A stretch of DNA of 64,000 nucleotides, taken from positions 872,592 through 936,591 of the forward strand of contig JH720319.1 of assembly GCA_000231825.2 (NCBI GenBank), read 5' to 3'. The translations under genes were made by a program, and so were the position numbers. Origin of the DNA: Tetrahymena elliotti 4EA (lineage: Eukaryota; Ciliophora; Oligohymenophorea; Hymenostomatida; Tetrahymenidae). Positions 34,250 to 62,562 of this stretch are shown here, piece by piece. Position 1 is the first letter of the stretch. Every line of letters starts with the position of its first letter. The notes below the pieces were generated by a model. The model was given only the letters and a program-made list of their open reading frames with translations, was not told the DNA's origin and searched no databases.

Positions 34250-37200
34250 TCATTGTTTATTTTATTTTGTGTCCAGCTTTTGCTTTTACCTAAATTGCAT
34301 TTAAAAAGTTTATTCTATTTAATGCTATTCATCAAAAATATCATTTATTTCTTCCTCTTCTTAACTATTTTTACAATTTTATTATTAATTTTTCACTGCT
34401 TCTTTTATATAAAACAAACTGAATTTTCTTTCGAGTTAATTTGAAACATTTTCTTGTTTATATAGAGAATCTTTCTAATTTTTTAAGTAGCTCTTAGCCT
34501 ATTAATAATTATCAACATTGCTACTATCTAATAGAATAGTGGATTTTATAGACTTAACTTTTTTGTGCAAAGCTGGTGATTTTTTATGTGAGTTTTTTGA
34601 ATTTTAGAGAAAATTAACTGAAAATTCATTAGTTTGATTTTCTCCTCTTTCATTTATAAAGCTAACTATAATAAAGAAGAATAAAATGAGTAAATGATAA
34701 ATATATAAAATTTTTTACCAAGGTTCATAGCAGTGGTTAGTAGAGTTTTTTTCTTTTTATCTATATGATTTATTTTATTGATGGCTTTATGGCTGATAAG
34801 AATTTTAAGGTTTTTTTAGATTTTTTTCCAACGTAAGAAAACTCTTAGATTTACTGAATAGTAGTTCAAATAAAGACTAAAAATTTTATTTGGTAATAAA
34901 TGTCTAAAAACATATTTGAATATTTTTCCTATGTATGTGCTTGGATTGCTAATTTTGAAAAAAATTATGTGTAAAAATATAACTACGATGTAAGAGTAGC
35001 TTAAGAAGTAAATGATTCCTAATATGAACTATTCGTTTAAAGATATGTTTATAGCAGATAAGATACAATTTAATACTATCACTTAATAGCAAGATGTATC
35101 ACATCTTTAGTGATTTCTATTTTTAAATGGAGTTATGGCAAAGCTTGCCTTTGTGTATAGATAGAGAATTAAAATTATTATTTGATAATTCACAAAAGAG
35201 TATGAATTCTTCAATAAGCTGTTAATTAAAACTATCAAAATTCTAATATATATTCTTATAAATTCCCAGTAATAAAACTTTTATTTATATTCTGTGTAAT
35301 AGTAACCATAGCAATATCTAGTTAAGCAATAATTTAGTTTTTTTGAATTTTTTTTCAAGCCAAAGTAGACAATTATTGGGATCAGACTCCAAAATATTAA
35401 GCACGGAATAGATATTGCAAAAGCTATTTATCTGTATGAAGCATCATCACAATCTATTAGTAAATCAGATGCTACATATTCATTTGAACCTATCTATGTG
35501 CATGATAATTGCTTTGAATAGAAGTTAATTTAATTTGGCTAAAAATATATGTACATAAAGTTGATTAACGTAAATAAATGGAAATTCTTAATTCCAAATA
35601 GCTTCAATTTTTCAAATATTTTTATTAAGAGAGTCATTACTGCTACGAAAAATAATGGCAAAATAGCATATAAAACCTGCATGACATGAGAATATCCATA
35701 TTATTCTATTAAGTCCTTATCTAAAATACAACTCAAACTAATGACGATTTTATTGCTAGGAGAGTTTACAAAAGATGGAAAGTAAGAAATAAACCTAGTA
35801 AGTAATGAAAAAGGCTATGGTATAACTAGAGAGTTAATCTAAATAAAATTAATAAAAATTTTTAGATAAAAAATGGATTAATCTTTGATTTAGTGTTTGT
35901 AAATAGGTATAACTTGCATCAGTCTAAGATATTAGCAGGTTTGGTAGTGAGTGAAATTATTGGTAAACATGATTACACTGATCAAAAAGTATAAGCATAA
36001 AAATATAAATGTAAATGTTATAAAAATTATTTAATCTTTTTGAGGACTGCATTTTTCACATTGAGTAGAATCAACAAAAGAGTGTGTGAATCTGTTTTCC
36101 CTCCAAATTTATCCTACCACATCACAAACACTACAGATAGGACCTATGTAACCTTCGTTACAGCCATTTATATTTTCGGGATTATTAGGTTAACATGAAT
36201 TAACATTCTAATTACATTTCACAATCTCTGAAGTCTAATTATTTGCTCTCCAATATCCATCTTTGATTTATATTAAATTTGATTAGCAGTTTAAAGCGGA
36301 ATCGGGACATTCATTACATTACAGCTAAACTTGGCTAGTTTAATTCGTTTCTTACAACACTATTTTATTCCATAAAGTATCTTTTGTAGGATCTTCTAAT
36401 GAATAGTAACCAAACTTGCATTGTTCACAGTTGTATGAACCTTAATCAGCCTATTTTAGGATCTCCCCTACTTTGCAAGTTCTGAAGTGTATTGTTAACT
36501 TAATAGGCTTTAAATTTTAATTATTTTGAGATGATATAGAGTAAGATATCTATATATCCTTTTGATGAGTTGGTATAGAAGAAATAGTGACTTGGCTGAA
36601 TGAAAATAATGATTATTCTTCCATAAATTACTCATAAGTGACAATATTTTATCCGTTTATACTTATATTAGATTATTCATTTGTTTCTATCTTAAAGTAT
36701 ATACCTTTTATCTCCTCTACTATTTATGGAGGGTATATATTATTTTTGATATCTGATACCTAAAACTTAAAAATGTTACCTTCTATATCAAATATTTGTA
36801 TATTCATCATTAAATATGAACCGCTCTTAAAATTACTGTATTATACAATGGATAGCCATTAATTTTTTTAAGATTAACCCATTTAATTTTAATCTATAAA
36901 TAAAAAATCAGGAGGTTCATAATTTATATCAGTGTCAAATTAACTTTTTTAAAAGTTATTTTCGATTTTTATTGCAGACAAATAAGTAGCAAAATTATTT
37001 CCAAATAAGCTAGCAGTATTTTAACTAAATAAACTCTTATGTTTATACCATATTTAATCTTCATTTACATAGTTTTTATTTACTATTCTAATTCCTCCTC
37101 CAATCAAAGCTTTATTTTCTTTAAAAATTACATCATCACCAAAATTAATTTTACCATAAAAGTCTTCAATGTATAGAGCGCCACCACTAGCAAGTGCTTG

Positions 37201-40200
37201 ATTGTTAATAAAACTTGTATTTTAAATATCTATCAGTTCAACGCATTAATTGAGATTTAAAGAACCTCCATCTTCAGAAATATTATTAATAAAGATACTA
37301 CTTGAAATATTTATTTGAGTCGAGAATAAAACTTGAAAATTTCCTACATTATTTTAATAATTTAACTAATTAAAAATAATAAATGTATTTTGAAGCTTAA
37401 TTAAGGGTATGTACAAGTCTTGAGTTTAATTATTTCCTATGAGCTGTAATCCATAAAGATGAATACTGTCTGATTATAGAATATAAAAAGCTAAGCTATT
37501 ATCATATTATTTAACTGTTTAGAGAAGCTATAGATTACTATTATTTTTAAATTAAATATTTGTAATATTTGTATTTTACAAACTAATCAAATTAAAAACA
37601 TAAGATTAAGATGAGCTTTGATTTAAATTATTAGAATTAAATGAACAGTTTGATATATCTACATCAGAAATAAAAGCCTCTTTTGCTAATATTACTTAGA
37701 TCAATTACTACAAAATTGTATTAAATACTTTTAGCCCTTAAATCTTAAGCAAAGAAACATTTTCAATTTACAAGAGATTGTAAAAGTGTTTAGGTTATCC
37801 ATTATTAGATATTAATAAATTATAAATAAACACCTATGAGCAATTTCTGAATAATAGAAAAGGAGTAAATTATTAGTTATTATTGCTAGCTCTTTCGTTT
37901 TAACTAAAACTTAAATGGTCAATAATTACCATCTATTAATTGACAAACTAAAATTGTATTTAGCCAATATTTTGATTCGAAATATTAATATTCTAAAAAT
38001 TTATTATCTTTGTTGAATTACCAAAAGTAATATTTAAGTTTGGTTGATTAAACTGAATTTAGAAATCTTTGAGATTTATTTCCTGTTTTTAATATTCCTA
38101 AAAGGATTTTTCCTCAATAATTAACGTTTAAAGATCTTTGTTTCCATATTCTGTGATTTAGTTTGAAGAAATAACTAAAGAGCTGTCTTATGTACCTTTA
38201 TAGCTTACAATACTTAAGCTTTGAGATTAGAGAGTCAACATATATTAACTATTTTATTTAGATATTTTCTAAGATTCTAGAAGATAAGGAGTAATAGATG
38301 AAATTGGTTTTACATTTTACAATTTCTAAAGCATATCTAAGTAAGATGCAGCGCATATATTGACTCCACATTATTTATTATTATCTTACATTTCCTCATA
38401 ATTTAAATTATATTAAAATTCTATAACACTATCCATTGATAATAATATAACTTGCAGCATTTTATTTCCATTAGAATATTAGCCTGCATCTTAAATTATT
38501 TAATATTTCATGAAAATAGGATACGATAATCTTTATTAATCCATATATTATATAGAATTATCTGCATGAATAGATATTAATTCATATTTAGCTTCAAATG
38601 CAATTAAAAAATAAGTATCTTCTATAATGATTAGTTATTTAATGAAATCATAAATATTCTCTTTCCTTATTGTTTACTTGTGTTCCAAAGTTTTTCTATC
38701 TCTAATCATTATAAAAGCACTAGATTATAAGACAACTAAATTCTATGTTATTTAAAGTTTACTGGTTTATTTTTTTGTAAGCATTAAATAATTCATCATT
38801 AATTCTTATTTCTAGTAGCTATAGACTCTAACAATTTATTCTGTAGCAAAATTTAGAAAAAACCTTTCATAAACTTCATCAACCCCAAACATATCAACAT
38901 TCTTTTCTTTTTAATATTAATATGTTTGAATTTGAGAGAAATCTAATATCATCTCAAACTACATGCTTGATTTAGAATAAGTATATATTCCGTATTAAGA
39001 TAAATAACATATCCAAACAAAAGAATATGTTTCAATAATATAAATTATGGGGGAAATAACTGTATTAGTTTAGTTTAGTTGTTGTTGAATATTAATTGTC
39101 TAAAAATTGTTTTACGTTATATCATAAATAATAAATTCACCAGTACTTAAGCCTAGATACAGTATATTATTTTCTTATGAGTATAAGTCAGATGTAATTC
39201 TATCATTTAATTTAAATTAGAATAGAATTTATTATTTTAAAAAATCATAATGCCAAATCGAGTTGTCTACTGTAAGAAATATATTGTAAGTGAAAAATTT
39301 AACAAATTTTTTATCATTTAATAAAGATAAGGTATGGTCTAATTACCAGCCAGATTTATTTAGAAAAATTTAGTTTGATATTTACTTGAAGCAAGCAATA
39401 CTTTTAGATAGAGCAACTATCATATAATCCTATTCAGCTGAATAGAATATTTAAGTAATATCCTCTTAAAAATTGTAAAAATACTTAAGCTAATTATTTG
39501 TATATTTATAAAGAACTCCTTCTTCTCCTGCTATGATTAAAAGATTGTTAAAAAACAAATCTTATTGTTCTAAACTACAAAATATATTAGAGTTTTAAGT
39601 TTTAAAAAATTATACCCTATTTCCAAGATCACCATAGCTTACTTAGTACACAGATAATTGTGTGTAAATATACAAATTGTTATTTTTAAAGTCTAGGCTA
39701 AAACCTTTAGCTTTTGCTTTTGATTAAGCAGAAATATCTATAAATTTTATTAAATCTTAAAGATTAATCTATCCTACATATGAAAATGTCTAAAAATTAC
39801 CTATGCTGTCTAAATAACTAAAATAATACTGTTCATTATCATAAGATACTTGAGATACTTAAGATTTTGAATTCAAAGAGTAAGAATTTGAATATTTTCC
39901 ATAAAAATCAAAAGAATTTAAATCGTAGAATAAAATCTATCCATATTACACATTATCAGTATAAATAGCTAAGTGATTGAAACTTGATAAAAAATACATT
40001 CCTAATATAAAACCTTATCCTAAGGCTTGAAAGGAGTTTTTGATAACAAATGAACTTCTGTCTAAAATTGTTATATCTATTTTAAATAATAATAATATTC
40101 AATAAAATTTTTTGAATTGTAAAAATGAAAATAAAATAAATACAATATCCAGTTCTACAGGCAATGTTTTCTTAGTAAAATTGTAGTTCATTAACTGAAT

Positions 40201-43200
40201 CTTGCTACAAATTAATGGTTTTTAAGAATTGCCCTTCAAAAGAGTAAATTTAAATTAAATTATTGTAAAGAAAAATATTTTAATATTAATCATCAATAGC
40301 TATTTAAAAGTTAGTTTCACCTGATTAAATCGTATGATTAAGATTTAAGGAGATATTATCAATTATTAGTAATTCAATCTATTTTGTTTTACAAAATATC
40401 TTATTAGAGGATAAGATACAGTCCAAATCACCATTCACTATGTAATCTGTTTATTTTAATATTTTTAAGTTTAAGTCTAAAATAGTTAATTTATCTCCAT
40501 AGGTGTATATTTTATCTTCATTTAATATAAAATTCTGAATAGTTCCCAAACTACTTGACTAAATGTTACAGTTTTTTGTATAATCCCTTAACAGTATAGT
40601 GTTATCCTTCAATATTAAAATGGAATTGAAAGCTTCTAGAATTTCAAATTATTGAACTTTCTAAAAAGGCTAACTTAAATCTATTCTTTCTATTAATTAA
40701 TTTGTATAAAGGCTAAAAACTAAGATGTTCGATTTTATCACAAAATATTTACCCATTTTCATATTTTGTTTAACTGATTATATTTCATCTCCATTATTAA
40801 CTTCTTCTGAAGGCATTTTATAAACTAAGATATATTCTTCATTTTAAATTGTATTAAAACCAGATATACCAGAAAAGTCTCCAAAGAATAATAATTAATT
40901 CTTAGATATTAATTATGAAAAAAAAACCCCAAAGTAAAATTCTAAGTTAGAGTTAACTGAATCACTTTTTTCAAGATTCCATGTGTAAAAATTAAATACA
41001 GAACAATAACTCAAAAGAATAAAATTTTAAAAGGTATATTAATCAATTTCAGCCATTTAGTTAAAACTCTTTTGAGGATTTATTAGCATATCCCCACTAA
41101 AACTAAATCCAGCAAGATAGTAGATATTCTAAAATTTAGGAATTATGTAATTTTAAAACTTAAAAGTAGCATAAGGATTATTTCCTGATATAAAGTAATA
41201 AATATCATTAGGATCAGATTAAACAAACAGTATATTAATAGCTTCGGAAAGAGGAATATTATCTTTTTGGTAAATTATTTTCAAATTCTAATCAAAAATA
41301 ATAAATTGAGAGTTATTATTAAATATTATTATTTCAAATGTTATTTAATTTTAAATCTAGTAAGACTAAGGAAAATTACGTATTTATAATTGTTATATGC
41401 CATATAAACTTTGGTAACTACTCACATAATTAAGTTTCATCATATCAGGATCAAAATAAAGCACATCTATATTATAAATTTTTTATATTACAATTAAGTT
41501 AGAAATATCAAAAAAAACTCTTATAATATTATCATTAAAATTTTCTGAGCAGTCCTTGATAATTTAATTGAATTAGTTATTTAAAACAGCTAAGCAAGAA
41601 TCATACAAAACAAGAATAAAATCATTTTGTTGTAAACAAAATTTTTTTTGTTATTTTGATTAATTATTTTCAAAAACGATTTAATTTAATATTTAAGAAT
41701 GCAAAGCATCCAAAAACACAATACTCTCATCAAATATAACTACAAGTCTGTTTTCACTTAAAAATTCTACCTACCTACAAATCCCTTAATCACTTATTAG
41801 TTATTAGTCAATATATCTTGGGTTATATAAATTCGAAATATCCCATGTTGCTATCAAGCCATTTAAAGCGCAAGCAGAAAATAAATCTCCTTTTAAATTT
41901 ATGTTTAGGCTACTAATTTAGTTTTATGGATTTGTGTCTCTCCTTTAAAAGGAGTTTAAATAATATTAATTTTCAATGGCCATCTCATTTTTTATAATAT
42001 CATATTAGTAAATGAATGTCTAAATACTTTATGAATAGACTAAGATATAAAGTTCAAATTTTTCATTATTGATTTCTTAAATTTGCAAATTTAAAATGTT
42101 TTAAGGGTTTTTTATTATTGTTTGTGAGGTTATTAAAATTCTAAATTGGTTTTACTAATCGTTTAATGAATATATACTAATATCATTATTTTAATACAAT
42201 ATGATTAAAAATTAGATTTTGTTGGTTATTGAGATTGTAATAAAATCTATAATCTAATTTAAATTTTAATTGCTTATTATTTACATTTTTGTGTAGTTTT
42301 CATCAAATAAAATTATTTTATTCTAAAATTGGACAATGAGATAATTTTTAACACTTAAAGTAAATACTTAAAAATTAAAAGGAAATTCTTCTAAATCAAT
42401 CAAAGAGCAAGTTTATGCATTGATAGATAATTGAATTAAATTTTAAGAAAATGATGATAACAATAAGTAAAGGCCATTTTTGAATTAAATAATTTTTGAA
42501 ATATTTGGGACTGGACTCTAACAAATAAACTGGAAATTGTTATCAATCAGAATAAGCTTAGAATTTTGCTATTTTATTGTTTAAATTGAAATAGAACTAT
42601 TGTTGCTCTTAAAAAAATTATCTTGGTAGAAGTAAATATTCTCACCTTAAACCAAGTCTAAACTTATTTACTCTTAAAAAGTTAATTGGTTATCATTTTT
42701 TTAAATTAATCTTAAGAATACTTTTGTTTGTGTCTTTTCATAATTCACTAAATAGGCAAATTCATTATTAACATCAATTAACTCAGTATAAGAATCAAAT
42801 ATTCCTCCTTATTAAACAATATTCTACTAATACTCTTCTTCCAAAGATAACTAAATTATTGTATTATTATGATTAAATTATAGTAAATTCATATTTAGGT
42901 AATTAGTAAATATCGTATCTAACTCAAACTTTATAGAATACTCAAGATTTCCTTCTTTTATATTTATAATGCTAGCCTAACTTTAATATATCACTAAAAA
43001 GCTGCTATTATTTATTGCTACTATTTATTTTATATTGCTATTTCTAAGAATTCCTGTCTGCAAATTAAATTGTTGAGAGCAATATAATATAGAATCACAT
43101 GTATTGGTTTCTGGATTTGCCTAATAGCCAAAGTCGCAAATGGCTTAGCAAGTATTCTCTTAAGTTGTGATATTTTCTTACTTTTTCTAAAAAAATAATT

Positions 43201-43396
43201 ATGAATTACAATTATCATATACGCAAATCTTCTTAGCATTGTCTAAATAGAAGTTATTATAACATTCAGTACAGATGCCATTAGGATAACACTGTTTGCA
43301 ACCTGTAGGACACAAATCAGTTTGCTCAATAGTAACTTTAGCAAGCCAAAGTATAAAAGTAGCTTTAATTATGATAAGCGATTAACATCTTCTCAT
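34250..43396 (-). CDS. Giant multi-domain membrane protein, paralog A (2993 aa, four exons)
   Basis: Exons are 42368-43396, 40144-42322, 34719-40076 and 34250-34665, with introns of 45, 67 and 53 bp. The signal peptide is MRRCQSLIIIKATFILWLAK. A Cys-rich module follows (CPTGCKQCYPNGICTEC, then CQAICDFGY). Residues about 100-1950 are beta-rich, propeller-like sequence with a WD-type repeat (CALNGLIATWDIS, about 500). Residues about 1950-2250 resemble a right-handed beta-helix, with ALASGGALYIEDF and NKALIGGGIRIVN about 25 residues apart. Residues 2268-2413 are Cys-rich (CEQCKFGYYS, CNEGYIGPICSVCD). About eight or nine membrane helices follow (2415-2850), with TRYCYGYYYTEYK and FYYWEFIRIYIR between helices. 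The tail of about 140 residues is Gln/Asn/Lys-rich and cytosolic. The topology suggests a cell-surface receptor or adhesin with a very large extracellular part; the ligand is unknown. It lies head-to-tail with paralogs B and C. Confidence 0.88.
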
Positions 43397-43745
43397 TTTT
43401 ACACAAATTTTTTTGATTAATTATACTTTGAGACTAATAAAACTAACTGCTTTCTTTTCTTTTTTGCTGTATAAATTTAATTTGAGTATTTTATAGGCTT
43501 GCTATTAGAATAGTAATAATATTTAATTAAAATGGTCAATAAATAAGATTAAATCATACAATTTGTCTTATTTATTAACAAATAAACGACAAATATGAAA
43601 AATAAAAACCTAAAATTTAAATGAAAACAATATATTCTTATTTTAATAAAAAATTTGGACATAAAATAACTTTTCACCAATATTTATGTTTAAACTACTT
43701 AAAGTCAAAAGAAAAAAATGACTTTTAACTTTTTAATTGTGTAAC
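43397..43745. other. Short spacer between paralogs A and B
   Basis: 349 bp of AT-rich sequence. It must hold both the 3' flank of paralog B and the promoter of paralog A, as both are on the minus strand. No conserved element was recognised when compared by eye with the 53016-53383 spacer. Confidence 0.5.
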
Positions 43746-46700
43746 TCAATCCTTTTATGCTGAATTTTTCTAATTTAATTTTTGTGAAAGGTGCTTGAAT
43801 TTTGTTTCATAATTCTATGAAAAAACAAAATTTTAAGAAACAGCATTATTATCAAGATCTTGTAATCCATATATTGACTCTTGAGACTTTTCAGTTTAAT
43901 CTTTTTGCAGTAAAATTTTGTTTTCTTTTTGGTCATCTTACTTTATAGATAATTTTTATAATTCAATTGATTAGCTTTAATTGTTTTGTAAAGTAATATT
44001 ATCATTTTAACTTGAAATCATTTAAAAATCAACATTTTATCTTAAATTATTATCATTTTATAAACTAAAGATAGAAATATTTTGTTAATTAAAAGTAGAA
44101 TTCGGCTTTTAGTCAATAGAGTTAACTTAAAAATTTATAAAGCTATTCATAAAGATAGACTGACCTATTATAAAAAAAATAAGATAAATAATGAATGAAT
44201 AAATTAATTAATAACTTATTACTTTGACTTTGATGAAGAGAACTATGAACCAAGGAATTCTAGTTTATTTATTCAAAAGCCTGTTTTTTTATCAAAACTT
44301 AAAGATTTTTAAAAATAGATTTCCAATATTTTAAAGATTTTTTTTCTTTATTTTATCGATTTTAAAGATTTTGAGATAGGGTACTAAAGTTTAGTTTCAG
44401 AAGTAGAGAAACAAAATATTTTCTAAAAAAATTTTAAGGATTTTTTAGTTTAAAAAATATTATCTAAAAAATAATTTTAGTAACAAAGAGGAAATGAATG
44501 CTCCATATTATTGATAAAAGAATCTATGAGTTTAATGAAGAGTTTACTGTTGAAAGAAGAGTGTTAAATATGATCACTTAGTAGCAAAAGTTATCAAATT
44601 TTTAAAGATTTTTGTTTACTATAGGAGAGTAATGCATTGCATATTTTATGTAAATGTAAATAACAAAAACACAAATCTGCTAGTTTATAAAAGAATATTC
44701 TTTCAACAGTGTAGAGAGAACTACAATCACTACCCTAATATAGATTCTAATTATTTCCCAATAATAAAACTCAATTTTGAATTCAGTGTAATAATATCCA
44801 AAAGTATACCTTGTCACACAATAATCTAGTTTTTTTGATCTCCTTTTCAACTTGAAGAATATTAAGAGTGGTAGAAAACTCCAAAATAGTAATAATGGAA
44901 TTGAGAGAATGTAAGCAAAATTTCTATAGCTAGGTTCTCCACAATCTATCAGCATATTAGAAGATACATAGTATTTAGACCCTACTTTTGTGCATGCTAG
45001 CTAGTTAGAGAAGAAACTAACTTGATTTGGCTAGAACAGTACAAACAAAAGGTTAACGAGAGTATATTTATGGTATTTTTTTACATTAAACTTTTTAAAA
45101 ACTCTCAAAATATTTGTTATCGATAAACAAAAAATCAAGTAAGCTAAAGGCATTATTGCCTGTAACATCTAGAGAGTTTAAATTCTCCCTATTTCAGTTT
45201 TTGCAAGCTAACTGACTATACAACTCATACTAATCATGAATGAATTAGTTGGTGATCCAATAAAAGATGGCACTACAGCAAATATATCTGGAAACATCGA
45301 ATTTTAATATGCAACCAGAATAGAAGATATCTAAGTAAAGTTGATCAATATTTTTAGATAAAAGCTTGATTAGTCTTTTATTGAATTATTTAAAATAGGA
45401 ATTATTTTCATAGCTCGAAGATAATAACAAGTCTAATGATGCATGAAGTTATTCATGAATATAATCATTTAAATCTATATGTAAATTAGGAAAGCTAAAA
45501 AAGTAAGGAGGGTTAAAGCTACTTGAAGTGATAAAAATAAACATTAAGAGCATTTTAATTCATTCTGTAATGATTTTGTAAATATTTTGCCATCCCATAT
45601 TTTACCTGAATAGTCACATTCTCTGCAAACTGGACCTGTATGTCCAAACCCACAGTAATTTTTGCTTTCAGGATTTTAACCTTGACATACATTATAAACA
45701 GTATTGCATTGTATGATTTCTGTAGATAATTCATTTTTCCTCCAAAATCCATTTTTCAAAGAAATTTAATCTCCTTTACAATATTAAGCTTCGGAAGGGC
45801 AGTTATTACATTATTCTTCCTAACTACTACTTTAAGAGATTTTATCTTTTGAAAGGCTTTGATCAGAAGAAGAATTAGGTAATTATGGATTAACCAATGA
45901 ATAAAATCCAAGAGGACATTAATAGCAGCTATATATGTTTTTGCTAATTTACTTTAAAATCTCTCCTCTTTAACATTACCTCAAATTTAAATTAACAAGA
46001 ATTGGCTTACTTTTGACATATGAATTTTAATTTAAAATGAAAGAAATTTAAATGTGTTATTGAGATTTAGGAAGAGATGTTATTTGAACTTGTTTAAATA
46101 TAAATTTGTTATTTTATTCAGAAAACTATTAATAAGTTATGATATCTTAGCCTGTAATAGAAATATAAGATGATGGAGAAATATTTTCTAATTTAAATTT
46201 AATTTGAGTAATTTCCTATATAATGCTATTAGGATAGATATTTTAGCTTACCTTAGAAGGATAATAAGTAAATTCTCTCCCTTCAAAATCAATTAATGAT
46301 AAATATACGATAAAATTAGAGCCACTCCTAAAGTTATTAATCTCAGCTATTCCATACCAAAGTTCATTTTCTAAATTTGTCAAATTATCTTTAGTTCTAT
46401 ATGAATTTAAAAGACTTAATTCTTACTGTTCTTCTCCTGAAATATTTTAATCATTTGGAAGGCTTAGTCCTATATCTTGCAAGAACGTGGTAAAGTTATT
46501 TCCATATATTTCAGCAGTGTTATTAATAAATACTTACTTAATTTAATTCCAATAATTCAGATTGAATTGGTTATAATTTTCATTTATAATCCTTAAACCT
46601 CCTCCAATTAAGGCTGTATTATTGATAATTTTTGTTGAGCTAACTTAAATATCTAAATCTCCATAAAATTCTTGAATTAAAATAGCTCCTCCATTTGCAA

Positions 46701-49700: not shown

Positions 49701-52700
49701 AAAATTTTATTTTTTTAAATTCAAAAAAATTTTAAATAATACTAAATTATTACATCCAAGGTTTCTATACACAAGAAATTCTTTGAAAAATTAGATTTCA
49801 TATATTAGTCCATTTGATTGAGTAATTTTTTAGACAAGATAGCCATCTTAAGTATATACTTCAACGGTTGAAGTAAACAGATAGATTTACAAATATTCAT
49901 CATCAATAGAAAATCTATAAGAAGAATCAAGATATTCAGAAGTAATAGTTGAAATAAGTTACAAGTTTTTCAAAGAATAAATACGAAATTCTGAATTAGA
50001 CATTTTGCAGCCTAGAATTTAACCACCTGCTTTTCTACAAATCTAAGCATTGATGTTTGATAATTTTTTTTAAAAATTGATTTTTAAACTTAAACTCAAT
50101 GATAAGAGATCGCTTCCATAAACATAAATTGAATCATTATGGATGATAAAACCTATTATTAATTAAAGGCTATCAAATTTATAAGTTTGATTATCAGAGT
50201 AGTTTCTTAGTTAAAGGCAATTTTTTTTAAGAGCAATTATTGATAAATTTTAAGGAGAAATTTTAAATATTTCTATACTTTAAGGTGATTTGTAAACTTC
50301 AATTGTTTCTATATATTCGTTGGTATATAAATTATATACAACTATATTTGATTTAATCACAAAAAATAATCCTAATTCAAGACTTTAATTTACTTTCGTT
50401 ATATAATCTTGCAAATTTTATTCTTCATTGCTAATTTTATATGTTGGTTCAATAATATTTTTTTTGACAAGACTTGCTGCCAAAGCTCCACTTTAGTCTC
50501 CAATAAAATAGTAAGAACTGCTTTTGATTAACGAAACTTAAGTAAATTGCCATCCTTTTAGCTATAAAATATCTCCTACCACACTATTAGATGAATAAGC
50601 TCCCCATACAAATGTTACAATTTAGCTAAATAAATTATTTATATTTAATAATTTTATTTCATAAATGGTATTGTTTGGGGATAAATTCAAATATTTTAAT
50701 ACTTTGAAAATACTGTTACCTCCATTATTGTAGACACAAATTTAAGAACTCTTTTAAATTTTGGAAATAGCATAAACTATATTTTAGTAAGAAGTTTTGT
50801 TTTGAAAGGCTCTACCAAGCACAAAGTAAAATTCCTCTTCTTCATCACCTTACTCCCCAAAACCAATATCAATTGGTAGATTAATATAAATATTTGGTAC
50901 TTGTAGAATAACTTCCATTAATTCATTTAATATTAAGAATTCATAATTTTATTTGAAGATAAGTAAGTCGAAAAAAGTTTTATTTTAATCTCTATTTTTA
51001 TAGCTTCTAATCTTTGTTTACCATATCAAATCGTTACTATTGTATGTATTTAGATATGTTAGCTATATTGGCTGCAATTAATCATCTAATTAGTAAGAGA
51101 TTACTTCTTTCTACTTTTGAATTACTATGAGATACTGTTTTGTAAATTCTAAAGTTAATATTGTTTCTTCAAAATTTTATGAACATTCTTAAACTATCTG
51201 ATTATTATTTGAATCAATTATGAAAAGGCAAGAGTCAAATATCATAATTGCATATTAATTTTATGAAGCAATAAACTTATTTAGTTAATCTTAAAGTTTG
51301 AAATTCCATTAGTTTTCAATTTAATGAGTGATCACATTATATCTAATCACACAGGTATCAAACAAAACCAATAAACTACTATAAGTAAAATAAATAATAT
51401 TTGAAGCATTTCCAAATTCTCCAAAATTAATAGAATCTATAATTTTGGCATTAAAATATTAACTTGTATCCCATGTTTATATCTATCCACTTGCTGAGAT
51501 AGCAGAAAAAAGGTGGTTATTATTAGACTTTATTGATGCTATTTACTTAGTTTGTTTACTATATTTTCTTTAAAAAGAATTTATAATTTTTTAAAAACTA
51601 AAATCAAGTTTTTAATCTTAAATGTTCACATAATAAGCTTATATCTCTTAATCATAAGTAAATATTTTATATAAGAAGCTATCATAATTATTTTAGTTAT
51701 CACTTATTGGGAAAATCATAAAATATTTAGATCTACTAATCTACTACTATTTTACTAATTAAATCTTTTATTGATCTTAGCCTTAAGTTTAACTCTATTA
51801 ATAGAAAGCTAAAGTATTGTTACTATATAAAGTAACAATAAAAATACTATTTGATGTCTATAAAATGTTAAATTAATAGAGTTGTGTTTACTAGAAAGAA
51901 GATAGTTCATAAGCAAACAACAAATTACTATCTAGAATTAATAGCTTATTTGTAAAGCTCAGAAAAATTTTTTCATCAGTACCTTATTGAATTAAAACAA
52001 GCTGTTTTGGATAGTCATCCAGCTAATATGATTTGCAAGTTTACTAACTCATTTTGATTAAATTTTTTACATTATTAGAAATTATAAAAAAAGAATCACC
52101 ATTATTAAAAGAAGATAAATCTTAAATCTGAATAGATTAAAGTTATTCACACAAAAAATCACTTGTGTAATTTTGAAGAGTTATTTTTTATTCTTATTCT
52201 TAAATTTAAATTATTTTAATTCCTTTATCACTTGTAAATATCAAATTTTAATCAAAAATAAAAATCTACTCTTATTCTTTAAATACAATAGAAATGAATT
52301 CATTTTCAGTTTCAAATTGTGAATTTTCAATATTAAATATTTTTTTGATAATCAAGGTATTAATATCTTATCTTGATTTTGCTATTAAATAAAAGTTATT
52401 ATTTAGTAGAAGTAATTTAGAAAAACTATCTATTATTCCTGTTTTTTCATTACTACTTAACATTTGAGTTATTTTTAAAGAAAGAACTGAAATAGTTTGG
52501 TCATTATTGAACAAGAAAAAATAGCCACTCATATAGAAAGCAAACAAAGTATTATATTGAAATTGAATGCTTTTAAATAATTATCCATCATATAAAGATA
52601 TTAGATTCATTTTATCTTGATAGTGAACTAATGCAACATTCTAAGCATATTAAGTTATTTTCAATATTGTTTTCTAAGAATCAATAGAATCTTATGAGAG

Positions 52701-53015
52701 TAAAGATTTCGAGCATGGATAAATTAATTCACAAATATTTAGATCTTTATTCATCCAATATCCTTCATCACAAACAGACTAACATGCTTGTTAAGAGAAA
52801 TCTATTTAAGGTAATTTTATTTACCAATAGAGATCTTTGTCACATAATAAGTATCTACAGAGGCCAGTCTTCTAATCCTTCTCAAAGTTAGACAAGCATT
52901 AAAGACACTAATTTTAATTATCACAAATGTCACACCCTATCTGGCAAATCTAACAATTTATGGACTTTATGACAAGAAAAGTTGTAATAAGAACCAGCTA
53001 TATCTTGATGTTCAT
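43746..53015 (-). CDS. Giant multi-domain membrane protein, paralog B (3020 aa, three exons)
   Basis: Exons are 49754-53015 (3262 nt), 44223-49604 (5382 nt) and 43746-44164, with introns of 149 and 58 bp. The signal peptide is MNIKIQLVLITTFLVIKSIN, followed by CQIGCDICDNQNQCLQC and CQSVCDEGYW. The propeller-like region includes SASGQIQTWDTSQYF, the counterpart of the WD-type repeat in paralog A. The second half opens with NIGQVFSTGGGNILKFF. The beta-helix region holds NKAFANGGAILIQEFYG and NNTALIGGGLRIIN (about 2056-2090). The juxtamembrane Cys-rich part has CGFGHTGPVCRECD. Membrane helices run from about 2445 to 2875, with TRYTFGYYYTEFK and FYYWEIIRIYIR. The tail (2882-3020) is Gln/Asn/Ser-rich. 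Unlike paralog A it has no intron after codon 343. Function is unknown; a surface receptor- or adhesin-like role is inferred from topology. Confidence 0.88.
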
Positions 53016-53383
53016 TATTTTTAAAGATAATTATGAATGAGTTATTTTAATTTAAAAATAATGCAATTTCTATTTAAAGTTGTTATTATAATAATTACTA
53101 TTAATTAAGATAAAAATCAAAATTGAATATATTTAAAATAAATGCAAAAAAGAATTCATACTATTTAAAAATAAGGCTATTGTGTAATTAAAATAAATCT
53201 TTTTTAATTTTTAAGATAATTGATAAACTTCTTTTAAAAAAAAAAAGTAAAAATTTTTTAAAAAATAGAAAAATGATTATAGAGTGATAAAATGTGGACA
53301 ACATAAATATTAAAAATATAAATCTAATGTTTAAAGCTCCAAAAAATTAAATTTTATTTTATGTCTTTTTAGGTTTATGAAAA
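53016..53383. other. Short spacer between paralogs B and C
   Basis: 368 bp of AT-rich sequence between two head-to-tail genes. It includes A-runs near 53237-53247 and should contain the promoter of paralog B. Confidence 0.5.
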
Positions 53384-56300
53384 TCATAACTTAACTTAAT
53401 TTTAAGATTTTAATTGCTTTATATCAAGTGAAATTTTCCTTTTAAATTTATTTTCATAATTCGAATTCATAACATTTGAATAGACATTACTTTGAAATCT
53501 ATCTGATTTACAATTTACTTCATCAAATTAGTCCAATTAGTATGAAAAATCATAATTATCAGATTATTCATAAAAATCACTTTTTTTATCACTTTTAGGA
53601 TACATATCATAAGTCTTTAAGTTTTCACTTTGTACTTTTTCAAGTTTGATGATTGTATCGTTTTCTAATTAATAAATAAGATATTAAATATATCAAAAAA
53701 AATTTATTATTTACCAGCATAATCTTTGTTTTTAGATGAATTATTATCATTACCTTAAGAGTTCAAATGTAAGATAAGATTAGATACCTTTTATTTTAAT
53801 TGATTTCTCTTTGTTCCTGTTAGTGAGTCGAAAGCTAATGTTTTATAAAAAAATATATGATAATTAAAAACAACTAAAATGAATATTACTATAATTTGCA
53901 TTTAGTTTAGCAATTGACTTTTCTTAAGCAACTTTTTATAGTGCTTCTAATTACACAATCAAATTTAAGTTTTTTTTTATTTTCTTCCAAGATAAATATG
54001 TTTTCCAACTTGTTTTTTAATTTTTTTAGAATTTAGTATAAATAGAAATTGGCAAGACTGTTTTTAACACCCTACTAAAGCATCTCCCTAAACAAGTTAA
54101 AGGATTATTAATTTTAAAAAATAAGATAGCTAATACAATCATAAATATGAATATCAAATGAAGTGAATATATTAAGCCTGATATTGCATATGATTTTGTT
54201 TCTGTATTGATTGTAGATAATAAAGAATTTAGTATGATAACCTAGTAGCAAAAAAGGTCAAATCTCTATAAATTGTTATTTCTAATAGGATTAAAGTATA
54301 GAGTAAATTTGATGTAAATAAAGAGTATGAAAATGACAACTTAGTAGCTAATAAATTGAGATTAGGATGTGAGGGTAAACGCAACAACTAAAATAACTCT
54401 TAAGTATATCCTAATAAATTCCCAAAAATAAAATTTCTCTTTGAATTCTTAATAGTAATATCCAAAGTAATATAGAGTCAAGCATTTTTGTAGTTCATGA
54501 GATCTTTTTTAGAGTAGCTTAAAAATTATAAATGGAAACAAGCCCCATATTATAATTAATGGAATAGATAGTGGGTAAGTGAATGAATTATAGTTAGAAT
54601 CATTACACTTTATCAGTAAATCTGATGTTACATATTTTTCTGATCCAATTTGAATGCAGGTTAGTTACTTGGAAAAGAAATTAATTTGATCAGGTTAAAA
54701 GAAAATAAAGATAAAATTCATTAAAGTAAACTTATGATACTTTCTGATTCCAAAAAGTTTTAGCTTTTCAAAGACGAAAACTAATCCAAGTAAAATGGCT
54801 AAGAATGCTATTGGTAGAAGGGCTTGAAATACTTGTATTACATGGGATTAGCCATATAAATTAATTAAGTTTTAACTTACAATACAATTTATACTTACTA
54901 TTACAGAAGCATTAGGATCCCCAATATAATTGGGCAAAGAAGATAGGAAATCTGGGAAAAAGCTAACCTATAAAGAAACCAGTACAGAGGAGATTTGAAT
55001 ATAATTTACCAATATTTTTAAGTAAAAGCTAGATTAATCCAAAATAGAGCCCCTTGAAATAGGTATAAATTTCATTTATCTTAAGTAAAAGCACACACTA
55101 GAGTGAACAAAAGAATTAAAAAAGAGTATCATACTTAGAATAAAGTAAATAATCAAAATTATAATTGCTAAAAAAATAAAAAATAATTGGTAGTTAACAT
55201 CGTTGCATAAATCACATCTCAACTAATTGATAAATGACTTAGAATAGCGTTAACCATTCCAAATTGCACCTCCAACATCACATACCTTACAAATAGGTCC
55301 CATATATCCTTTAAGGCAACCACTTTAGCTAGTTTCATCTTGCTCATCACAAGCATTAAAAATACCAGAGCATTCTACAATATCAGAAGAAGTGCTATTT
55401 TCTCTCCAGTATCCAGTTTTTAAAATTATTGTGTTGTTTTAGCAAATATAGGCTTAATCAGGACACTTTTAACACTCAGATTATTAAGAGACTAATTCAC
55501 TTGCATTATCATCTGTTTTTGATATTTGATCATACCAGAACTTATCTTTAGTAGGATCTGTCATAGAATAAGAACCCAAGGGGCAAGAAAAGCAACTAAA
55601 TATATTATTTTCAAGCTATTTAACAACTTCACCTGGACGGCAAATTCTCATTTACATTTCTATGTAAATAGGAAGAACTTTGATATTGGAAGGTGTATAT
55701 TCAGGTATGATTACCAAACTTGTTGTTTGATTTGGCATACTAGAAATTTAAATTTATGTAAAAACAAATCTATAGTTGATATCATCAAAATCTGAAGAAG
55801 TTATAATATTATGCCCATTTATCAATATTTGTTAATTAACTGAATAAGATTGTATTTTAAATTATATTTACTTTAATTCACTCATGATGGGATCAGGATA
55901 TAATTATTAATTATACTTATTAATTGAAAATTTAAAATAAGTCTTTTCTGAATCAATTAATTAAATGAAAAGATTAAGCATGCCACCACTTTAGAATTAG
56001 AAGATTTGGAGTATTTATTAAAATTTACTTTAATTTGATGAATTCATATTCTCATTTTAAATAATATTATAATCTATTGTTGAAGTGTTGTCTTCTGAAA
56101 TCTAGCTGCTTTATATTACTCCAATGCTTGTAGTTTATAAGAATGTTCCTACGTTTTTTCCATAAAGCAAAGCAGAATTGTCATAGATTATATTTTGATA
56201 GGCAAAATTTAAATTCTAAGGTAAATCAGAGTCAGTATTAAATAACCTTATTCCTCCACCTATTAAAGCTGAATTTTAATTTATGTTAACATTTTGATCC

Positions 56301-59300
56301 ATTTATATTACTGCTCCAACATTCTCAAAATAAATAGCACCACCACTAGCAAATGCCTGATTAAATTATAATTTTGTATTTTAAATAGTTATTTTATTTT
56401 AGCATTTAATCAAGGCAAGTGCTCCTCCATTCAAACAAAAGTTATTTAGAAATTTGCTATTTTAAATAACTAAATTTTTTGATTATGTGACTAAAAAATT
56501 CCCTTAGTTGCTTTAGTACGTAATATTGTTAAAAGCACAGAAAGAGCTTTAAGCATTAACCAAAGATTAATTTTTTGAATAAGAAATTGTGTTTTATGCA
56601 AAATACAGACTGTCAATATTTAAGGCGTCTATCTGTAAAACATATTCTATTTCATTTTCTTTATATATGTTGGATGTATTTATGAAAAGTAAATTTTTAT
56701 TTTCATAAAAATTTAGATTTTTAAGAGTGGAGCTCATTATCCCAATTAGATTGATAACATAAGAGTTTTAATTTTTAGGATTTTAATTACAATTAATGAT
56801 CTAGAGATTATTAATTATGAGATTATTAGTTTAATAAATATAAATTAAAGAATCAATTGTAGAGTTTTAGATGGTTAAGTTTGATATAGTCAGTTTATTA
56901 ACATTTATTGCAGAGATCAAGCAGCTAAAGCTAAGATCTTAAAGATTATAGTTATCTAATACTAGACTGTAAATGTTCACTGTTTTAACTCTATTAAAAT
57001 TAAAGAAACAAACTTTTTGAGTATCATTAATAAGCTATGATCTTCTTTGCAAACTTTTTAAATAGATTTAATCGAATACAACTTTATCCATATCAACAAA
57101 TTAGAAATTAATGTTGTCTACAACTTATGATGTTATCTGTATATTATTAAATGTAATAAAATTTGAATTTTCATCAAATTAAATTAATCCAATATTATCC
57201 TAAAAGACATAGCTGAAATCTCTTATTTAAATTTCTTATTTTTTGTAAGAAGTAAATGAATCTGAATATATTTTGAGTGGAAAATATTCTGAGTTTCTTG
57301 ATAAATCAGAACTTTAGACAGGAAATACTTAAGTGAGACTGTTAAGAGTGCTTTAGAAATTTATGGTTCTTAAATCATTAGAATTTAGTAGAATATCCCA
57401 ATAGTTATTTAAACTGTAATCTGTTACTGGGATCATCGATCTCTAGGAAGGATCTGGATACGAAACTGGTTTAATTTTGCTCATAGAAAAGGAAATATCA
57501 TAAAATGAGCTTACAGAAACTTCTATTCTACAAATTTTGTTCTATGTTTAGATACTTTCATAAACTAGATTATATCTTTATTCAACAACCTACTTAGAAG
57601 AGAGTAATATTATGCTCATAATCTAATTCAAGCTTTAATTAGTTGCATTAGTAAATGAATAAGCCATATATGTTGGATTTGATAAAGAAACTTGATCCAT
57701 TAAAACAGCCTCAAAATTATTTTATTGAATTACAAATAATTCGTATTTGTTTTAACTTAATAATACAAAATATTTATTTTAAATTTCAATCACATCCAAA
57801 ATAAAATCATTATGGTTGTCTCTTCTCACTCTTGAGATGTAATTAAGATTTACTCTATCATAAATCATAACATGGAAGGTACAATAAACTAGCAAATGAG
57901 ATTTATTGATAATCAAAGTATTGTACATAACACCTGGTAAAGAAACATATTAAATCAGTTTACCTTTAAAATCAAATACTCTTAATAGCTTTTCTCCTAA
58001 GAAATTTAAAAATACTCTACCATTTTATTCGTCTAAATCAAAGAGCATTACATTTAATTGTTTAAATGTCTTATAAGTGGATAAATTATTAAATTAAATA
58101 ATTTGACTAAAACTCAAATTTGAAAGATTAATTTTAAATATTCCTTAAGAGCTACTAAAACAAACCCATAAATCAGTAGATGTTTCTGCTAAAAATCCAA
58201 TTTCTAATCCTGAATAAGGTTGTCCTTACTATTTCGGTATTAAATTTATAGTTTGTAAATCAAAAATTTGTCTATTATATATTAAGACATCTCCATTACT
58301 TAGACCTAAATAAACATTATGAGTGACTGATGAGCAGCCTTATTTGACTATTCTTGAGATAGGGTCTTGTAATTAAATAACCTTAAAATTACTTTTATTC
58401 GCAAAGTTATAGTGAATAATTTATCTATCTTTAGTAACAAAAACGTCTTCACAAATAAATGAAGAAAAACGATTATTCAAATTAATAGTTTCTGGTTGGT
58501 TTAACCAAGGACTCAAGTTATTTAAAGAATTTTTGTCTAAATTATTAAAAACTACTAAAGATTGAGAGAGGGCTATAATGAATAATTTAAGGTTTTAATT
58601 ATATTTTATACTTAGTATTTCTTCACTAAGTTAATAAAAATATTCGAAATTGGTATCTTAATATTTGTATAATAAGCCTTAATCACCAGCTATTATGAAA
58701 GAATTATTATTAGAATCTTATTCAGTAGAATCTATACTTTTTATCTAAACAAATACTTCTTTTTTACTTGTTCTAAATTGTATAAGTTTATTAGTTAAAT
58801 CTCCATAGCAAAGACTGAAAACTTAAGTTTAAGAATAAACTAATAAGTTATTATTTTGAAAATCTAAAGAAAACCCAACAAAGGAGTAAAGAGAGAACTA
58901 GTTATATTCTACAAATTTAGTTGTAGTCCATGTAATATATTAACCTTAGTAATCTATTGTTTGAAAGCTTCCTGTTTGGTCTAATAGCACAAATAAGTTT
59001 TAATCTTTATCATAAAGATAATTCACACTGACTGAAGGTTAATTTTGAGAAAATGAATTTTTATATTACATAATAGTAAGCAAAGTATCTAAACTAATGG
59101 TAAAAACCTGAGCAAATCTGATAACATTAACATGGAATACAAGCTAGTTGAGTTCGGCTATAAAATATGTTCTTTAGATAACACCTCCACCAGGACTAAT
59201 TATTTATCCTCTGTAATTGAAAGTTTTTCTTTCAAAGATAAATATATCTATTGAGTTAATTAAAATAGTAAATAGAATAATAATTTTAAAATTAAATTAC

Positions 59301-62300
59301 TTGTAGAAGTGGCAGAGATATCGTTTGTTAGAATTTTTATTTCTTTTATTTATAAGTTAACTGTAGATATATACATTTAGAAATTCCCATTAAAGCTGTA
59401 TACTTCTATATTTAAAGAATAAAGTATTATTTGTTGATTTTAATTATCTATTTAGAGCTAATAATTGTTATCTAAGAATCTCTATTAAATAGTAGTTATA
59501 GGATTAAGATTTTATTTATCAAAGATTGTGGTTATAGCAGATGCTCTTTTGCAAATCAAACCAACATAACTTAAACAGCATTACTAAACGATTGAATTAT
59601 CTTAACTATTTTTTAAAGAAACTTTTTCTACTAAATCAAATCCTAGAATTGATATGCTTGTACCATATAAATAAATATTATTGCTATCTACTAAATAATT
59701 TGTTATTGTATTGAATGTTGAATAGAAATAAATTTTATTTGTTTAGTAGTTCTTTAAAAATAAAATATTTTATTTAAAACAAATTATTGAGAACTGTGAA
59801 TCGACAATTGAGAAATATTGTATTGGTTAATGAGGATTTGTTTGAACTTCTAATTATTCTATGAATTCATTTGTACACAAATTGTAAACTAAAATGTTAG
59901 ATTTTACTATGAAGTACTTTTGCAAAGCTAAACTTTGATAAACACCTTGAATAAAATCTTTTTAATTTACATCTTAACTATTTATATTATATACATTTGT
60001 ATATATCTATCTTCTTGTTGCATCAACAGTCATCAACCCATTCTTATCACCAATCATAAAAAACTACTCTTATTTAATAGTCTGGAAGACATTTACATAT
60101 ACAGAGGGTGATAAATAATTTGTACTAAAAAAATTATCTTAGTTTTGCATATTATAGTAAAAGCTTTGAACTACAGTTAGATAACTCAAAGCTACAGCTG
60201 CTTTAAAAGTGTAAGCAATAGCTCCATTAGCTGAATTAACATCTTTGTAAACAGAAAAAAATTTATTGAAACCGCTTTATTAGGTGACTTGAAAAATGTT
60301 AGTATAGTTCTTAAATAAGGCAAATGCTTAATATCTATAAGATGCAGATTTTTAGCTACTTATTCCTGCTATAACATATAAGTTATCTTCAGGATCATCA
60401 GTCATAAAGCTTATATCGATTGCTGTCTATAGAAGCACATTTTGATAAGTCACTAAAATATTTAGTCCTTAATCAAAGAGAATGAATGATTAGTCAGAAA
60501 AATATGATGCGATTTCGAAGATTATCCCATTTTACTGCTAATAGCTATCAGGAAAATTTCTTATTTTCCAAACTTAAATTTAGCTTTGAGTTTAGTATGA
60601 AGCTTTTAGATTTAATTAATTATTTTTGATCTAGAAAATTGAAAAAGAGTTTTGTTTTTATACAACTAATTTCATGCTTGGATCTAATTTCACAGATATT
60701 ATAATGTCATCAAAGAACGCACTGCAATCTTAGAATATTAACTGAAAGTTTTAATCTAGTGCTTTGAAGCAAGAGTCATACATTAAATAAGAATTACCAT
60801 TTAATGTTAATACAAATTAATTTACCATTTTAGATTATGTGTTAACAAAATTCCAAGTTTTAATAGATTAGGAGTTTATTACATCCAGAGCTAAGATACT
60901 GTTTTGGAATAAAATTAAAACATTATTATCTGTTAAATAAGCAAGCCTCTGGCATTGCCCTTAGTTATTTATTTAATTTGTATCAAAAAGTTAAGGTTTA
61001 ACAATAGTAGAGTAATCCCAAGTCATAATCTACCCATTTATTGAACAAAAAGTAGCTAAATTTCTTGATTCATTTGTATCCATAGATTAGATGCTAGAAT
61101 CCATATCAATAGATTTAGATTAAAATGGTTTTAGAAAATACTGATTTACAAAAATTAAAGAATTTTCATTTGTTACATTCAGTGTGAGAGATTATATCTA
61201 TTTAGAATAGGCAATTATCTAAATTTATTTTAATTAATTACTATTATCAGTTAATTTATTTATAAGAGCTAAATTTGTTGGATTAAAGTTATTTAATTTG
61301 AATGAATAAATTAACAAAGATTTGAAATTCTTTTTTAAATTAAGTTTGAAAAAATTCAGCTGTGGAGCATTATCAAGGACAGAGCAAATCATATCCTATT
61401 CAGAAATAGTCAAACAAAGAAAATCTATTGCGTTTGCTTAGATTTCTATTTGTGCCACTTTCGTTAAATTTTCATCTAAAACAAGGATGAGAGTCTAAAG
61501 CTAAAAAAGATACAAATTTGATTATTATTATGGTGATGAAGAATAAGAAACATTTTTTATTTGTGAGCATGGTTATGGAATTTAAGTTATTTAGCAAGAG
61601 GTTTGATCTAAAATTAAGAAAAATGTCTAATCACTCAAAATTATGATGTTTGATTAGTTGTATTTAATTACTTTTAAAATATTTTACGAATTTACATTTT
61701 AGCATGAATAGCCATTTGAATATTATTTTGTATTAAGGTTATTATCTTTATCCAAAAAAAGTTAAAGAGCTTCAATTCCGTTAAGAGAGGTAATCAGTAA
61801 AAGGTCACTAAAAAAATAATAACCTTAATTACTAATTTGATTAATTTATAATTCAGAAAGTTTCTCTACAAAATTTTAATTTTCTTAATCTAATAAAAGT
61901 GTTGCGTAAATTTTTTATTTTTTCCTATCAAAAGTGATAACTATTCCAAATTAATCATTCATAGAAATAATTTAGGTGCTTTAATTTATATTTCCTTATA
62001 AAGCGAAATTAAACAAGGCAGTACTATTATTCTAATAATTCCATCTTGAAACCTTATTATCATTTTAGAATATATAAAATATACCTTGATGCAATTGAGC
62101 ATATTCTATATTCTGTTAAAAAGGTATGCTTTACATAAATCTACCAGTATTTTTTTATAATTTACTGATGTAAGAAGAGTAGACAATAAAAAAATATTAT
62201 TCCTCATATTATAAGACATATTTAATTAGTTCATTAACCTAACTAATACCTGTTTATGAGCTAAACGTTAAAGAGCATTAGTTTAAATTGACACATAAGC

Positions 62301-62562
62301 TTGTAATATTATCTCCTTTATATCCTTGATCACAGACAGCTTAGCAAACTCCTTGAATCTAGTTGATTTTTTCTTAAAGAAACAAATATGGCAAGCATCC
62401 TTAGTACACGCAAACTCCTAAATCAGGATCTAATTAATAATTATCTTCACACTATGAACAAACATTTTACAGGCTACACTAAATGCAACCTTTAGAGCAT
62501 CCTATAGTCTATTTTATTAGATGCATAATAGTTATTGTGGTTAATAAATTACATAATTTCAT
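53384..62562 (-). CDS. Giant multi-domain membrane protein, paralog C (3006 aa, four exons)
   Basis: Exons are 59301-62562 (3262 nt), 53890-59247 (5358 nt), 53715-53834 and 53384-53664, with introns of 53, 55 and 50 bp. The start reads MKLCNLLTTITIMHLIKQ (signal peptide), then GCSKGCIQCSLQNVCSQC and CQAVCDQGY. The WD-type repeat appears as CSINGQIMTWDYS. The second half opens RGQIISPGGGVIQRTYF. The beta-helix part has NQAFASGGAIYFENVG and NSALIGGGIRLFN. The Cys-rich part has CLKGYMGPICKVCDVGG. The helical membrane region starts near 2440 and includes FGYYYQEFK and FYFWEFIRIYLR. The tail is split by an extra intron that A and B lack, and ends SLDIKQLKSQNQVKL. Its first and second exon lengths equal exon 1 of B and exon 3 of A respectively, showing a common gene structure. 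Function is unknown. Confidence 0.88.

What the first reader, a model, noticed from the sequence alone, without database searches (positions are those of the whole stretch)
34250..62562. Head-to-tail array of three ~3000-residue multi-domain membrane proteins
Three genes fill 28.3 kb with only ~350-370 bp between them. All share one architecture: signal peptide, Cys-rich module, propeller-like repeats with a [NAS]G[LQ]IxTWDxS motif, GGAI and GGGI beta-helix motifs, a GxxGP[IV]CxxCD module, eight or nine membrane helices with YYYxE[FY]K...FY[YF]WE[FI]IRIY, and a Q/N-rich tail. Combining propeller and pectate-lyase-like extracellular parts with a polytopic membrane domain is unusual. I know of no described function. 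Tandem duplication with divergence would suit a surface-recognition system (mating type, prey or adhesion); that is inference.
Basis: partly seen in the sequence, partly recalled or inferred. Interest (0 to 1): 0.8.

Follow-up and report, generated by a model that had tools for sequence, protein, structure and literature searches.

The report
Giant tandem Tetrahymena surface receptor-like genes
Three neighbouring genes of a Tetrahymena-like ciliate encode giant proteins that look like cell-surface receptors, with big folded outer parts set on a nine-helix membrane part distantly related to ion channels, and they belong to a large, little-studied family spread across this genome.

The parts
34250..43396 (-). 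Gene 1, about 3003 aa; exons 40144-43396, 34719-40061, 34250-34665
   Evidence: Gene model; homology to genes 2 and 3
43746..53015 (-). Gene 2, about 3020 aa; exons 49754-53015, 44223-49604, 43746-44164; exon 2 is 64% identical to T. thermophila P0007
   Evidence: Gene model; blastp
53384..62562 (-). Gene 3, about 3006 aa; exons 59301-62562, 53890-59247, 53715-53834, 53384-53664; 63% (exon 1) and 69% (exon 2) identical to T. thermophila P0008
   Evidence: Gene model, start moved up to the Met at 62562 by reading; blastp
62260..62499 (-). Gene 3 N-terminal Cys-rich module (genes 1 and 2: 43064-43321 and 52701-52955)
   Evidence: Profile made from these genes and one T. thermophila protein, (matches here by construction); alignment
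59305..62259 (-). Gene 3 exon-1 propeller region (genes 1 and 2: 40151-43063 and 49761-52700); two beta-propellers plus the start of a third
57416..59245 (-). Gene 3 further propeller-type region in exon 2 (genes 1 and 2: 38275-40074 and 47767-49602)
   Evidence: Profile span (by construction); sub-threshold Pfam Beta-prop_EML_2 in genes 1 and 2; WD40 chains at E about 1e-3 for the family profile. Not itself modelled
56027..57283 (-). Gene 3 right-handed beta-helix with GGAI/GGGI motifs (genes 1 and 2: 36850-38139 and 46378-47649)
54089..55672 (-). Gene 3 Cys-rich GPxCxxCD module plus nine membrane helices (genes 1 and 2: 34936-36510 and 44431-46008)
   Evidence: Profile; helices; TM-only hhalign
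34719..34935 (-). Gene 1 stretch after the last membrane helix, with conserved WKKIxKNL, before the Q/N-rich tail
   Evidence: Alignment; intron 34666-34718

Best explanation
The genes encode N-outside cell-surface recognition receptors. A large ectodomain (Cys-rich cap, probably four beta-propellers, a Pmp-like beta-helix and a small beta-sandwich) binds a ligand such as a partner cell, prey cell or matrix glycan. The Cys-rich GPxCxxCD neck passes the binding on to a nine-helix membrane module distantly related to PF06011 TRP-like proteins. Binding then changes ion (probably Ca2+) flux or recruits cytosolic partners through the WKKIxKN stretch and the Q/N-rich tail. Shown here: gene structure (predicted splicing), domain order, propeller and beta-helix folds (predicted), nine helices (predicted), family expansion, and remote sequence kinship of the membrane module. 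Inferred: four propellers, surface location, topology, ligand binding, signalling and any ion flux.
For: Domain folds. Membrane part conserved above the ectodomain. TM-only profile comparison with the P0116 group: 98.0% probability over 305 columns, reversed control 0.1%. Matches to Pfam TRP PF06011 in that group: P0116 E=5.5e-8, above cut-off; P0152 9.7e-6 and P0160 9.3e-5, below cut-off. In another set, 5 of 16 distant members match at E up to 5, the only polytopic family to recur. Related modules sit on other ectodomains: LRR in P0160, LNR in P0078 and P0087, RCC1-like propeller plus CUB in P0127. Lead: MRC2 has eight helices plus a pectin-lyase fold in a complex with MTA and MTB (PMC10901506 section 7). 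Recall, not tested: a variable ectodomain on a constant base is typical of recognition receptors.
Against: The window proteins give no PF06011 match at E up to 1, so the TRP link runs through intermediates, most of which match below the cut-off. No pore motif, gating element or ligand is identified. N-glycosylation sequons are not enriched over shuffles (28 against 32, 30 against 30, 29 against 37). The TM fold was not searched alone; VIA matches for that model cover residues 1-440, and Foldseek gave no E under 0.001 for it. pTM is low for both models (0.51, 0.42), so domain placement is unsure. No expression or localisation data were seen.
Confidence: 0.42

Rival explanations
1. Adhesin or scaffold: the ectodomain mediates adhesion and the membrane helices are only an anchor for a complex, as accessory subunits like MRC2 might be in the mating-type recognition complex.
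Against: The membrane part is the best conserved part, more than a mere anchor needs; nine helices are a costly anchor.
Confidence: 0.28
2. Polysaccharide-active enzyme: the beta-helix cleaves or epimerises glycans at the cell surface.
Against: Tailspikes and an adhesin match equally well, and a fold shows no activity. The beta-helix is among the less conserved parts (28-34% between paralogues). I did not look for a catalytic site.
Confidence: 0.1
3. Family-3-GPCR-like receptor: a nine-cysteine-type neck followed by a GPCR bundle.
For: Weak NCD3G match in gene 3 (E=0.016) and in P0092 (2.7e-6, below cut-off).
Against: Nine helices, not seven; no 7tm match in Pfam at E up to 1; the TM part connects to PF06011 instead.
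Confidence: 0.07

Closest known systems
Tetrahymena thermophila MRC2 (mating-type recognition complex subunit)
   Same: Ciliate membrane protein described as eight TM helices plus a pectin-lyase fold (PMC10901506 section 7)
   Different: No propellers are mentioned for it; all identified complex members are 92-212 kDa, whereas these are about 3000 aa; its identifier is in a supplement that I could not read, so kinship is untested
T. thermophila 'transmembrane protein, putative' P0007 and P0008
   Same: Apparent orthologues of genes 2 and 3, both from a contig of the same length, 1053479
   Different: Uncharacterised; P0007 lacks the exon-1 half, probably a split gene model
PF06011 fungal-type TRP-like proteins (TrpR, Pkd2)
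   Same: Remote sequence kinship of the polytopic module through intermediates
   Different: Window proteins do not reach the Pfam model; most fungal TrpR homologues carry a TRP_N/ML domain (PMC8618638, passages) instead of propellers and beta-helix
Chlamydial polymorphic membrane proteins (PF02415 repeats)
   Same: GGAI-type repeats on a beta-helix; PF02415 matches in relatives such as P0030
   Different: The window proteins give no PF02415 match at E up to 1, and Pmps are bacterial autotransporters (recall)
Proteins with the same kind of Cys-plus-membrane module in Patiria (P0160), Bryopsis (P0083), Stentor (P0087), Blepharisma (P0078), Stylonychia (P0086)
   Same: Cys-plus-TM profile matches (for all but P0160, which was fetched later; for all five); PF02415 or beta-helix matches in Bryopsis and Stentor
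   Different: No propeller Pfam is listed for these five (P0160); LNR in Blepharisma and Stentor, LRR in Patiria

Membership tests
TRP family PF06011 | Profile match above gathering score in the protein itself | tested here: not met
   No PF06011 match at E up to 1 in exon 2 of genes 1-3
TRP family PF06011 | Membrane domain homologous to that of PF06011 proteins | tested here: met
   Indirect only: hhalign 98.0% TM-only to the P0116 group, of which P0116 passes PF06011 (32.5 against 28.5 bits)
TRP family PF06011 | TRP_N/ML lumenal domain | tested here: not met
   No PF02221 at E up to 1 in the Pfam scan of the six main exons
TRP family PF06011 | Ion conduction | not testable with these tools
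   Needs electrophysiology
MRC2-like subunits of the mating-type recognition complex | Pectin-lyase-type beta-helix together with a polytopic membrane domain | tested here: met
   against the description read (eight helices there, nine predicted here)
MRC2-like subunits of the mating-type recognition complex | Sequence kinship to MRC2 and binding to MTA/MTB | not testable with these tools
WD40-type beta-propeller | Propeller fold | tested here: met
WD40-type beta-propeller | Pfam WD40-type profile above cut-off | tested here: not met
   Only sub-threshold matches, best Beta-prop_EML_2 with 22.9 against 90 bits
Right-handed parallel beta-helix | Fold | tested here: met
Chlam_PMP repeat PF02415 | Pfam repeat match in the protein itself | tested here: not met
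   None at E up to 1 in genes 1-3; relatives match
Family-3 GPCR | NCD3G plus 7tm_3 | tested here: not met
   NCD3G 15.5 against 38.9 bits in gene 3 only; no 7tm_3 at E up to 1

The most novel reading that the evidence does not exclude
Tetrahymena carries a repertoire of well over a hundred giant surface receptors in which propeller and beta-helix recognition ectodomains gate a TRP-like membrane module, and which includes MRC2. This would be the cell's main set of sensors for mates, prey and surfaces.
Probability: 0.2. Interest if true: 0.82.

Novelty: new variant of a known kind. Interest (0 to 1): 0.52.

Why it matters
The motif count and its sample point to a large family of giant membrane proteins in this genome, while the Tetrahymena relatives are mostly filed as 'transmembrane protein, putative' or 'hypothetical protein'. 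If the TRP-like link and the MRC2 link hold, the family offers candidate co-receptors and channels for mating-type recognition and prey sensing. Both can be tested by deletion in T. thermophila, which has apparent orthologues of genes 2 and 3.

Tried and rejected
Chance or artefact: rejected, because frames of about 3000 codons, a shared intron place and invariant columns recur in three paralogues and in T. thermophila proteins.

Recent local triplication: rejected, because genes 2 and 3 pair with T. thermophila P0007 and P0008, and gene 3 groups with dispersed members before genes 1 and 2. No orthologue of gene 1 was among the fetched proteins; its best matches there are 31-36% identical.

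More copies beside the array: none by profile in the 20 kb beyond the gene-3 end of the window (L009, L010) nor in window 1-34000. Diverged copies below E 1e-4 would be missed.

Sequon enrichment as topology evidence: not found.

PDB sequence search with the family profile: the 60 rows shown of 116 are propeller-type entries, as far as their names tell, best E 3.6e-4. The PDB fold search of the beta-helix-plus-TM model gave no Foldseek E under 0.001, and the VIA second look lists beta-helix proteins, so the TM fold remains untested there.

Automatic gene model: for gene 1 it chose a last intron (34877-34911) that breaks the alignment with genes 2 and 3; I replaced it by 34666-34718 (one of ten joins that stay open, chosen by homology and splice signals).

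Paramecium sonneborni P0093: it is in the profile search list (E 2.8e-30), and I can read a Cys-rich neck and a YYWEQI stretch by eye, but my local Cys-TM profiles did not report it.

Literature: seven searches. None of the listed titles and abstract starts describes this family, apart from the MRC2 paper; the lists are capped (for example 25 of 421) and one search returned nothing, so this is weak evidence of absence. PMC10901506: outline, section 7 and passages read. PMC12029339, PMC6564038 and PMC8618638: passages only. All others: search listings only.
Full report
What is there. The window lies in a 90 Mb, 134-contig genome (G000:C27:872592-936591) that uses the ciliate code; the 27 protein matches are all named Tetrahymena. 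Three minus-strand genes fill 34250-62562 with gaps of 349 and 368 bp. Each encodes about 3000 residues. A phase-1 intron lies at the same place in all three, and one or two short introns precede a Q/N-rich tail. Paralogue identity is 34-35% in exon 2 and 26-30% in exon 1. Exon joins are my prediction, guided by the paralogues; no transcript was seen.

The family in this genome. The degenerate DNA motif of GPxCxxCD occurs 176 times in the genome and 0 times read backwards. Apart from the three window sites, 24 motif sites were examined (L001-L008, and the 16 of L011-L028 that contain a listed site; picked by me from the first hundred listed, not at random). All 24 loci carry the Cys-plus-membrane module at E below 1e-4; in 23 the motif lies inside a matched piece, in L007 between two pieces. 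Of the 16 loci with 10 kb of context, 8 show the exon-1 propeller profile and 11 the beta-helix profile; the others may be too divergent or cut by the stretch. L018, L019, L023 and L027 show both propeller profiles, beta-helix and membrane module; L011, L021 and L026 show the same without the second propeller profile; L017 lacks only the beta-helix match. L018 and L019 on contig 33 are tandem neighbours (all). No further copy was found by profile in the 20 kb beyond the gene-3 end of the window or in window 1-34000. A profile count of the whole genome was asked for twelve times and never answered, so 176 is a motif count and not a gene count.

Age. In a tree of the Cys-plus-membrane part (59 rows), gene 2 pairs with T. 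thermophila P0007 (100/100) and gene 3 with P0008 (100/97). P0007 and P0008 are listed on contigs of the same length, 1053479, as expected if the array is conserved. T. utriculariae P0016 is as close to gene 3 in exon 1 (64%). Gene 1, the gene-2 pair and the gene-3 group meet in an unresolved fork. The gene-3 group also holds the contig-33 locus L019 and other Tetrahymena proteins (100/99). So the duplications are older than the species split, and some members lie elsewhere. Identity by domain: TM 81% to the T. thermophila counterpart of gene 3 and 46-48% between paralogues; propeller 1 61% and 20-23%; beta-helix 62% and 28-34%. Small parts (linker, tail, N-terminal Cys module) vary as much or more on one of the two measures.

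Wider relatives. A profile search (A6) listed 168 proteins (120 shown, only the 7984 candidates sharing most words were scored). Several prokaryotic ones, such as Methanobrevibacter P0084, have no Cys-TM match and so match by the beta-helix only. With a broader Cys-plus-TM profile, built from 45 of the records themselves, 104 of the 161 protein records held, the window's own included, match at E below 1e-5. Named non-Tetrahymena matches are Blepharisma (P0078), Stentor (P0087), Stylonychia (P0086), Bryopsis (P0083), Volvox (P0105), Astrephomene (P0115) and the sea star Patiria (P0160). E-values are for these small sets, not a public database. Ectodomains vary: LNR (P0078, P0087), an RCC1-like propeller plus CUB (P0127), LRR (P0160). 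So propeller plus beta-helix plus polytopic domain is striking, but its parts recombine widely.

Membrane part. The window proteins give no PF06011 match at E up to 1. P0116 passes that family's cut-off (32.5 against 28.5 bits); P0152, P0160, P0098 and P0083 match below cut-off; 5 of 16 distant members match at E up to 5. A TM-only comparison of 18 Tetrahymena rows (window genes included) with 13 rows of the P0116 group gives 98.0% probability over 305 columns, and 0.1% with the columns reversed. I therefore call the module related to, but not a member of, PF06011. PF06011 proteins are studied as TRP-like calcium-linked proteins in fungi (PMC8618638, passages).

Function. The T. thermophila mating-type recognition complex contains MRC2, described as eight TM helices with a pectin-lyase fold (PMC10901506, section 7). 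That description fits the C-terminal two fifths of these proteins. Whether MRC2 is a member could not be tested, because its identifier is in a supplement. I think surface recognition with signalling through the membrane part is most likely, with pure adhesion as the main rival. Neither has direct evidence here.

Known or new. The Tetrahymena relatives are in databases mostly as putative transmembrane or hypothetical proteins, a few as WD-repeat proteins. Among the titles and abstract starts listed by seven literature searches I saw no description of the family beyond the MRC2 lead. A survey of fast-evolving Tetrahymena genes reports WD40 and growth-factor-receptor Cys-rich domains among the top seven categories in species-specific genes (PMC6564038, passages); I did not check whether these genes are among them.

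Noticed in passing
P0007 (T. thermophila, 1962 aa): Its first about 36 residues look like translated intron before the exon-2 start, and the exon-1 half is missing: probably a gene split in the SB210 annotation.
   Followed up: partly
P0160 (Patiria miniata, 1185 aa): An echinoderm LRR protein matches the neck family DUF7630 and TRP PF06011, both just below cut-off, and the local Cys-TM profile, so the module is not confined to protists.
   Followed up: partly
P0028 (T. malaccensis, 2276 aa): An aspartic protease domain (PF00026) is annotated in a protein with this membrane module: either a real variant ectodomain or a fused gene model.
   Followed up: no
window 14470-16777, minus strand: Neighbouring gene with a protein kinase domain split over two frames, probably by an intron.
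   Followed up: no
window 18044-20632, minus strand: 863-codon ORF with a methyltransferase domain.
   Followed up: no
window 3436-5961, minus strand: 842-codon ORF without a Pfam match at E up to 0.01.
   Followed up: no
L017 to L019, L023, L027: A gap of about 75-210 bp between the exon-1 and exon-2 propeller profiles suggests that the conserved intron is shared by members elsewhere in the genome.
   Followed up: partly
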